This document shows, piece by piece, positions 54,001 to 57,000 of a stretch of 64,000 nt of DNA (its first letter is position 1; each line of letters starts with the position of its first letter). The position numbers were made by a program, and so were the translations under genes. The stretch spans positions 930,001 to 994,000 of the forward strand of contig NZ_JAFMOF010000004.1 in assembly GCF_017349075.1 (NCBI RefSeq), read 5' to 3'. Under the pieces are notes generated by a model. That model did not search any database, was not told the DNA's origin, and saw nothing but the letters and a program-made list of their open reading frames with translations. This DNA comes from Streptomyces triculaminicus. Lineage in GTDB: Bacteria; Actinomycetota; Actinomycetes; Streptomycetales; Streptomycetaceae.

Positions 54001-57000
54001 GGAAGGCGTAGGTCGGCAGGTCGGTGAAGGTGGCGTCCTGTCCCTCGAGGAAGGATGCGACATCGAGCGGCAGGCCGTGGGCGTGCCCCTCGGCCGCCGA
54101 GAGGAGGAAGCGGTCCAGACCACCCTCGTCACGACGCAGGGTGCCGAGCGCGACCACGTCCGGGACGTCCAACTCCTCAACCGACTGGGTCAGGACCGGG
54201 TGCGCACTGATTTCGACGAAGAAACGGAAACCATCCTCCACCAAACGGCGAACAGCAGGCTCGAAATGAACGGTCTGAGAAAGGTTGCGATACCAGTACG
54301 AACCATCCATCACCGTGGTGTCCAACCACTCACCGGTCACCGTGGACAACAACGGCACCGATCCCGCACGAGGCTCGAGCCCCTCGAGGACAGTGGCCAG
54401 CTCTTCCTCGATCAGAGCAACCTGACGCGAGTGCGACGCATAGTCGACAGGAACCCGCCGCACACGGACACCCCCCGCCTCAGCCGCCGCCAGGAACTCG
54501 TCCAACGCCGCCGACTCACCAGCCACAACCGTCGAACGCGGCCCATTCACAGCAGCCACCGAAATCCGCTCACCAAAAGGCTCCAGCAGCACACCCACCT
54601 CACCCGCGGGCAACGCCACCGACACCATGCCCCCACGCCCAGCCAACGCCGTAATAGCCCGACTCCGCAGAGCCACCACCCTCACAGCATCCGCCAGCGA
54701 CAACACCCCCGCCACATACGCAGCAGCAATCTCACCCTGCGAATGACCGATGACGGCATCCGGCACCACACCCACCGAACGCCACACAGCAGCCAACGAC
54801 ACCATCACCGCGAACAACGCAGGCTGCACCACATCAACCCGCTCCAGCGACGCAGCACCCACCTCACCACGCAACACCGCCAACAACGACCAATCCACAT
54901 GTACGGCCAACTCCCGCGCACACGCCTGAACCTCCGCCGCAAACACCGGCGACGACTCCAGAAGCCCACGAGCCATACCCACCCACTGCGAACCCTGACC
55001 AGGGAAAACAAACACCGTCTTCCCCTCCCGCACACCACCCTCAACAACCCACCCACTGGGCTCACCAGACGCCAACGCACCCAACCCGTCCAGGAGCCCC
55101 TCACGCCCACGCCCCACCACCACCGCACGCCGCTCGAACAACGAACGACCCAAAGCCAGCGAATACGCCACATCGACAGGGCCCACCTCCGGACGCACCT
55201 CCAGGTGCTCCCGCAACCGCCCCGCCTGCGCACGCAACGCCTGGTCCGTACGTCCCGACAACACCACCGGCACCAGCGCGTCGCCGTCCGCCGCACCGGA
55301 GTCCCGCACAAGCCCCTCCGCCGGCGCCTGCTCCAGGATGACGTGCGCATTCGTGCCCGTACCACCGAACGCGGACACCCCCGCGCGCAGCGGCCGGTCC
55401 ACTTCCGGCCACGGCCGGGCCTCCGTCAGCAGTTCCACCGCGCCCGCCGACCAGTCGACGTGCGGCGTCGGCTCGTCCACATGCAGCGTCTTCGGCAGGA
55501 CACCCTCACGAAGCGCCATGACCATCTTGATGACACCGGCGACACCGGCGGCGGACTGGGAGTGTCCGATGTTCGACTTGATGGAGCCCAGCCACAGGGG
55601 CCGTTCGGCGGGCCGGTTCTGGCCGTACGTCGCCAAAATGGCCTGCGCCTCGATCGGGTCGCCCAGCGTGGTGCCGGTGCCGTGCGCCTCGACGGCGTCG
55701 ACGTCGGCCGGTTCCAGGCCGGAGTTGACGAGCGCCTGCCGGATCACCCGCTGCTGCGAGGGTCCGCTGGGCGCGGTCAGACCGTTCGACGCGCCGTCCT
55801 GGTTGATCGCCGTACCGCGCAGGACCGCGAGTACCCGGTGCCCGTTGCGGCGCGCGTCGGACAGCCGCTCCAGGGCGAGCATGCCGACGCCCTCGGCCCA
55901 TCCGATGCCGTCCGCGCCGGCCGCGAACGGCTTGCAGCGGCCGTCGGCGGCCATCCCGCGCTGGCGGCTGAACTCCGTGAACGACACCGGTGACACCAGC
56001 GCCGCCACGCCGCCCGCCAGGGCGAGGTCGCACTCGTTCTGGCGCAGCGCCTGGCAGGCGAGATGGATCGAGACCAGCGATGACGAGCAGGCGGTGTCGA
56101 CCGTGACCGCCGGGCCCTCCAGGCCGAGCGTGTACGAGACCCGGCCCGACACGGCGGCGGTTCCGGAACCGAACAGGAAGAAGCCTTCCGTTTCGCCGCC
56201 CGGCTTGCCACCGACTCCGTACCCGACGAAGGACGTACCGACGAACACTCCGGAGCGGGAGCCCTTGAGGGTGCGCGGGTCGACGCCCGCCCGCTCGACG
56301 GCCTCCCAGGACGATTCGAGGAGCAGCCGCTGCTGCGGGTCCATCGAGAGGGCCTCGCGGGGCGAGATCCCGAAGAATTCGGCGTCGAACTCACCGATGT
56401 CGTGGACGAATCCGCCTTCCCGGACGTACGAGGTTCCGGGGTGGTCGGCATCGGGGTGGAAGAGCCCCTCGAGGTCCCAGCCCCGGTCCTCGGGGAACGC
56501 GCCGATCGCGTCGACCTCGTCGGTGACCAGCCGCCACAGGCCGTCCGGGGAGTCGACGCCGCCGGGGTAGCGGCAGCTCATGCCGACGATGGCGATGGGT
56601 TCGTCGCTGAGGTCGGCGGCCTTGACGGCGGTGGTGGCCGTCTCGGCGCGGCCCAGGAGTTCGCCGAGGAGGTGGTCGGTGAGGGCGAGGGCGCTCGGGT
56701 GGTCGAAGACCATCGTCGTGGGCAGCTTCAGCCCGGTCACCTCGCGCAGCCGGTTGCGCAGGGCCACGGCGGTCACGGAGTCGAAGCCGAGGTCCCGGAA
56801 GGCCCGGTCGGGTTCGATCGCCGCCGGATCCTCGTATCCGAGGGCGGCCGCCGCCTGTGTGCGCACAAGTACCAGGAGGTGCGGGGCGCGTTCGACCTCC
56901 GGGAGGGCCCTGACCTGCTGGGCCAGTGCGGAGGTCGCACCGTCCGTCCCGGTCGCGTCCGGACCGTCGAGCGCGGCGCGCACCTCGGGGAGGTCCTCGA

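What the first reader, a model, noticed from the sequence alone, without database searches (positions are those of the whole stretch)
54066..55296. Gene-conversion tract: loading-type AT inserted into module A3 with both breakpoints visible
The block matches the loading AT of PKS D (29778-31007) almost base for base. Just outside, A3 matches A2 instead: 54010-54066 equals the A2 post-AT region near 58460-58520, and from 55297 on it equals A2 near 59755. The left switch falls between about 54066 and 54089. This is what a recent AT exchange by homologous recombination would leave.
Basis: seen in the sequence. Interest (0 to 1): 0.62.

Follow-up and report, generated by a model that had tools for sequence, protein, structure and literature searches.

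The report
Recent gene conversion between polyketide ATs
A 1.2-kb stretch coding for one substrate-choosing domain of a giant antibiotic-type enzyme was recently copied between two modules of that enzyme; this is a known way for such assembly lines to evolve, here with both edges visible and useful comparisons in related bacteria.

Summary
Between A3 54086 and 55291 all 206 informative sites make A3 like the D loading AT and none like A2; the next sites outward (54065, 55303) are A2-like. D and A3 differ at 10 of 1205 sites, 8 of them in one 14-bp patch, plus one base of length. [quoted passage not shown] It is one of many: 46 stretches here and 39 in a collinear cluster (G428) are closer to a paralogue than to the orthologue. 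Corrections: the AT is an ordinary methylmalonyl type like A2's, not loading-specific, and the direction of copying is unsettled. Related clusters add interest: in Streptantibioticus silvisoli the loading AT and the A3 AT were homogenised independently; in G428 the loading AT is malonyl-type, predicting a different starter unit. D's AT has a frame break in a C run, probably a consensus error. Verdict: a clear new member of a known kind.

The parts
54066..55296 (-). Conversion tract in module A3 (AT body plus end of the KS-AT linker); informative sites run 54086-55291
29778..31007 (-). Partner tract in the KSQ-AT-ACP loading module of PKS D; D is A3-like rather than G428-D-like over 29772-31015 (507 to 3 sites)
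58961..59740 (-). A2 methylmalonyl AT: sister GRINS (identity 0.851, skews 0.33/0.48), not part of the recent exchange
55243..55256 (-). 14-bp mosaic patch with 8 D/A3 differences; A3 resembles G428-A3, D resembles A2
30954..30967 (-). The same patch in D
30394..30442 (-). Frame break in the D loading AT, in a C run (one base shorter than A3)
29735..29777 (-). D's own post-AT linker, outside the tract, resembling the A2/A3/S. silvisoli-loading type
31010..32322 (-). KSQ domain (DAGQSSS) of the loading module, 95% identical to G428
29339..29500 (-). Carrier-protein (PP-binding) match of the loading module

Best explanation
The block is a recent gene-conversion tract between the AT of the KSQ loading module of PKS D and the AT of extender module A3. 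It lies in a GRINS: a roughly 1.2-kb repeat whose coding strand is strongly G- and T-rich. Homologous recombination copied one methylmalonyl-type AT over the other, with edges in the KS-AT linker and just after the AT, leaving both modules' flanks unchanged. It is one of dozens of such homogenised stretches in this roughly 175-kb PKS cluster. Shown: tract, edges, near-identity, skew, pervasiveness. Inferred: the recombination enzymology, and that predicted substrate choice at A3 did not change. Left open: direction.
For: 206 of 206 informative sites inside, sharp switches at both ends. D is A3-like at 507 and G428-D-like at 3 sites inside, 39 and 428 outside. Flanks keep their own identity: D/A3 KS flank 56.5%, A3/G428-A3 KS flank 96.8%. 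GRINS cut-offs met by D, A3 and A2. Pervasive homogenisation: windows with no paralogue >=0.90 have mean orthologue identity 0.945 (n=4654); with a paralogue >=0.97 it is 0.849 (here only, n=139), 0.862 (G428 only, n=131), 0.894 (both, n=345). An independent D/A3 homogenisation in S. silvisoli: 185 to 12 sites inside, 88 to 172 outside, 0 of 10000 shuffles. Tree of 77 ATs: D with A3, then G428-A3, then the A2 pair (support values not printed).
Against: Reads were not available, so assembly error is not formally excluded; D's AT carries a frame break. The 14-bp patch is not explained by one simple event. A3 is more diverged from G428-A3 than a simple donor should be. No substitution bias towards G/T was found in the tract (52 towards, 57 away), so the skew is not explained by biased conversion.
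Confidence: 0.87

Rival explanations
1. Direction D to A3: the loading AT overwrote A3's AT.
For: A3/G428-A3 is 88.2% in the tract, against 96.8% in the KS flank and 95.9% for the A2 pair. With two divergent segments removed, 67/896 against 50/1209, Fisher p=0.001.
Against: Polarised changes lie more on the G428 side (65 vs 38 by A2; 57 vs 50 by S. silvisoli A3); branch tests borderline (p=0.056, 0.063) and the S. silvisoli comparison of the AT N-terminus is uninformative.
Confidence: 0.47
2. Direction A3 to D: A3's AT overwrote the loading AT.
For: A3 stays in a clade with G428-A3, and A3/G428-A3 identity shows no drop at the tract edges (0.95 to 0.97 on one side, 0.94 to 0.93 on the other). 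The D slot differs in all three clusters.
Against: The excess A3/G428-A3 divergence inside the tract is not expected of an untouched donor.
Confidence: 0.4
3. Assembly or consensus artefact: one AT was copied into the other place by repeat collapse.
For: D's AT has a frame break; 7 uncompensated length differences from G428 exist in the region, 5 of 7 being short deletions beside G or C runs, so the consensus is imperfect.
Against: The copies are not identical (10 substitutions, one length difference); both unique flanks are intact and collinear with G428; the same pair is homogenised in an independent assembly.
Confidence: 0.06
4. Whole-module duplication, or separate import of the same outside AT into both places.
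For: Either would give near-identical ATs.
Against: D/A3 KS flank identity is only 56.5%. Among 392 genus genomes (two candidates scored in each) only G000 and G428 have tract matches above 74%.
Confidence: 0.04

Closest known systems
[quoted passage not shown] 2021, PNAS; not held; definition read as passages in PMC9899208 and PMC10394414)
   Same: About 1.2 kb in a cis-AT PKS AT domain, high identity to another place in the same PKS, strong GC and TA skew, recombination between copies
   Different: Nothing essential; one partner is the AT of a KSQ loading module, and the same pair is homogenised in a second genus-level lineage
Concerted evolution of AT domains by gene conversion (Medema et al. 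2014, PMC4256081, passages)
   Same: AT domains cluster by gene cluster because of internal conversion, also between clusters for one compound (meridamycin)
   Different: Here individual tracts and edges are located, and one orthologous slot has changed AT class (G428)
Azalomycin F modules 3 and 6 (PMC9899208, passages)
   Same: Two nearly identical GRINS in two modules of one PKS
   Different: There the repeat spans KS-AT-DH-KR; here only the AT and the end of the linker
Divergent loading modules of eurocidin clusters (PMC12843615, outline and passages)
   Same: Related clusters differ in the loading module
   Different: There the AT shifts to acyl-CoA starters; here the AT beside KSQ is malonyl- or methylmalonyl-type, by motif only

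Membership tests
GRINS | At least 500 bp with >80% mean identity to another place in the same PKS (150-nt windows, step 30) | tested here: met
   D 29711-31000 0.980; A3 53981-55360 0.975; A2 58961-59740 0.851 (best BLAST match per window in place of exhaustive pairwise alignment)
[quoted passage not shown]
   0.33/0.48, 0.32/0.46, 0.33/0.48, the strongest of 65 high-identity regions in 230 kb
GRINS | Lies in coding DNA of a cis-AT assembly-line PKS | tested here: met
Gene conversion tract | Parent switch at both ends within otherwise unchanged flanks | tested here: met
   D side
Gene conversion tract | Non-reciprocal, donor identified | tested here: inconclusive
   no pre-conversion relative was found
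Methylmalonyl-type AT (D, A3, A2) | GHSQGE active site and YASH motif (meaning recalled) | tested here: met
   A3 and A2 show both motifs; D shows GHSQGE, its frame breaking before the second motif, and is nearly identical to A3 in DNA
Methylmalonyl-type AT (D, A3, A2) | Enzymatic substrate choice | not testable with these tools
   needs an AT assay or product analysis

The most novel reading that the evidence does not exclude
In this cluster family the loading-module AT is a conversion hot spot coupled to module A3: it was re-homogenised with A3's AT independently in two lineages (this genome and S. silvisoli) and replaced by a malonyl-type AT in a third (G428). Internal conversion would thus repeatedly reset or switch the starter unit of a giant polyketide while the rest of the line stays the same.
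Probability: 0.35. Interest if true: 0.6.

Novelty: new member of a known kind. Interest (0 to 1): 0.4.

Why it matters
Natural AT swaps with mapped edges show where a PKS tolerates domain exchange (here the end of the KS-AT linker and the stretch before the DLPTYAFQ motif), which bears on PKS engineering. This cluster and G428, about 93% identical in collinear blocks but with different AT classes in the loading module, form a natural experiment on starter-unit choice. The set also counts concerted evolution in one cluster pair.

Tried and rejected
Rejected: whole-module duplication (D/A3 KS flank 56.5%); outside import; collapse artefact (see rivals).

Led nowhere: polarising the donor with the S. 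silvisoli ATs (in the AT N-terminus A3 agrees with its loading AT at 42 sites and its A3 at 50; G428-A3 46 and 49). A G/T-directed substitution bias in the tract (52 towards, 57 away). Three-way tests on the nine-way alignment gave over-long segments because post-AT linkers align poorly (287 to 80 sites inside for A3); I rely. KSQ DNA against 100 relatives: 88 matched, none above 74% except the window's own among the rows shown. Against 395 relatives of G428: 5 at E<=1e-190, G428 itself 95%, the other four 72-75%.

Dropped on the way: a first reading as proof of A3 to D, dropped after S. silvisoli proved to have a methylmalonyl-type loading AT; and the idea (in note 4) that the tract ends at 55242 with a common motif beyond it: the common motif is at the other end, 53983-54023.

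Full report
Setting. The window is C8:930001-994000 of a 7.56-Mb, 13-contig genome, inside a type I PKS cluster on the minus strand spanning about C8:823,000-997,000. PKS A has three modules with AT motifs HAFH (A1), YASH (A2) and YASH (A3). PKS D starts with a KSQ-AT-ACP loading module, KSQ motif DAGQSSS. That YASH marks methylmalonyl and HAFH malonyl is recalled; HAFH for malonyl is also stated in PMC12843615 (passages).

The observation. D and A3 are near-identical from 29778/54066 to 31007/55296. With A2 as third sequence, all 206 informative sites from A3 54086 to 55291 are D-like; sites 54065 and 55303 are A2-like; 0 of 20000 shuffles reach the score. Flank counts are 37 D-like to 64 A2-like on the left, where the post-AT linkers align poorly, and 111 to 360 on the right. 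D and A3 differ at 10 of 1205 sites, 8 of them in 55243-55256. In that patch A3 resembles its G428 orthologue and D resembles A2, a small mosaic. Leaving the 14-bp patch out gives 2 of 1191 (0.17%), against a median window divergence from G428 of about 5.3%: on a rough clock the exchange dates to the last few per cent of the time since the two genomes split (inference).

What kind of thing. On the coding strand GC skew reaches +0.50 and (A-T) skew -0.66 inside the tract, in D and A3 and nearly as strongly in A2; outside, GC skew lies between about -0.16 and +0.2 and AT skew scatters on both sides of zero. The skew is strongest at third codon positions (GC +0.55, TA +0.91). With the cut-offs printed in PMC9899208 (passages), 22 of 65 high-identity regions in 230 kb are GRINS, and D, A3 and A2 are the most skewed of the 65. 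PMC10394414 (passages) gives about 1 kbp, identity often over 90% and skews above 25%, and says that gene conversion was suggested.

G428, a collinear cluster. Of 392 genus genomes (two candidates scored in each), 29 match the tract at E<=1e-100; only G000 and G428 exceed 74% identity. G428 is collinear in three blocks of 92.6, 93.4 and 92.9%; the BLAST blocks break inside the D loading AT. There D and G428-D flanks are mostly 88-100% but the tract is about 42-80%. G428-D has GHSIGE/HAFH in an open frame of 11594 aa and falls among malonyl ATs in a tree of 77 ATs. Among the matches printed within G428 the other ATs are 79.5-83.7% identical to it, so no recent donor shows there. D is A3-like at 507 and G428-D-like at 3 sites inside 29772-31015, and 39 to 428 outside.

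S. silvisoli, a third cluster. Its loading AT is GHSQGE/YASH, 90% identical to the AT at C114:14894-15985 and 75% to that at C114:19325-20421; contig C114 is collinear with window 38948-63148, so these sit at the A3 and A2 places. Loading AT and A3 AT share 668 columns with 13 mismatches. The three-way test gives 185 to 12 inside L060 7756-8527, 88 to 172 outside, 0 of 10000 shuffles, highest shuffled score 112 against 173. A3 here and A3 in SL54 are 68.5% identical in the tract, so the two homogenisations are separate events (inference). Their extents differ.

Pervasiveness. By one rule (paralogue >=0.93, exceeding the orthologue by >=0.05, >=240 bp) there are 46 stretches here and 39 in G428. 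These are pieces, not counted events: A3's tract gives two of the 46, and the low orthologue value printed for D (0.192) is due to the break in the BLAST alignment. Windows without a paralogue >=0.90 average 0.945 orthologue identity (n=4654); with a paralogue >=0.97 they average 0.849, 0.862 and 0.894 (n=139, 131, 345). Medema et al. describe concerted evolution of AT domains by conversion (PMC4256081, passages).

Direction. A3 differs from G428-A3 at 142 of 1206 tract sites (88.2%), against 96.8% in the KS flank and 95.9% for the A2 pair in the tract. Without two divergent segments it is 67/896 against 50/1209, p=0.001. That leans to A3 having received a paralogue, from D. Against it: polarised changes fall more on G428-A3 (65 vs 38 by A2; 57 vs 50 by SL54-A3), branch tests are p=0.056 and 0.063, and the SL54 comparison does not discriminate; nor does identity to G428-A3 drop at the tract edges. 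I leave it open.

The ancestral loading AT. D keeps its own post-AT linker, [15 protein letters not shown], like the A2/A3/SL54-loading form and unlike VDWAAFFAPYGA in G428-D (some other methylmalonyl ATs of the cluster also have VDW). In the ten BLAST rows printed, nothing but itself matches beyond its common motif. With SL54 also methylmalonyl-type, the simplest history is a methylmalonyl loading AT replaced in G428 by a malonyl one. Propionate as starter here and acetate in G428 is a prediction from motifs only.

Frame break. D's AT is out of frame near 30.4 kb. Against G428 there are 7 uncompensated length differences over the PKS region; 5 are short deletions beside G or C runs, two of these five far from repeats, and 2 are insertions at or outside gene ends. 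I read this as consensus error, not as proof of a dead gene.

Literature. Five searches returned the GRINS and concerted-evolution papers cited; I saw passages only, and did not search for this cluster or its product by name.

Verdict. A real, recent, well-delimited conversion in a known class of repeat: ordinary in kind, with a good comparative set around the loading module.

Noticed in passing
window 39622-40060, 44402-44793, 30394-30442; window-equivalents about -4.2 kb and -99.8 kb: Frame breaks in PKS ORFs that are open in G428, beside G or C runs; probably consensus errors.
   Followed up: partly
G428 D loading module (C3:1222240-1223560): Malonyl-type AT (GHSIGE/HAFH) beside KSQ where this genome and S. 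silvisoli have methylmalonyl-type ATs: a predicted starter-unit difference.
   Followed up: yes
G428 A3 orthologue, equivalents of window 55041-55110 and 54331-54570: Two segments strongly diverged from A3 (33 of 70 and 42 of 240 sites) without a close match elsewhere in either cluster; possibly small imports.
   Followed up: partly
window 12791-14290, 19151-21490, 35891-37480 and window-equivalents -8239 to -6020, -23569 to -20990: Other long GRINS up to 2.6 kb and 96-98% identical, larger homogenised stretches than the given tract.
   Followed up: no
window 32459-35184: Between PKS C and D: an ABC-transporter ATP-binding ORF (34294-35184, minus); four overlapping ORFs of 32.5-34.4 kb gave no Pfam match.
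   Followed up: no
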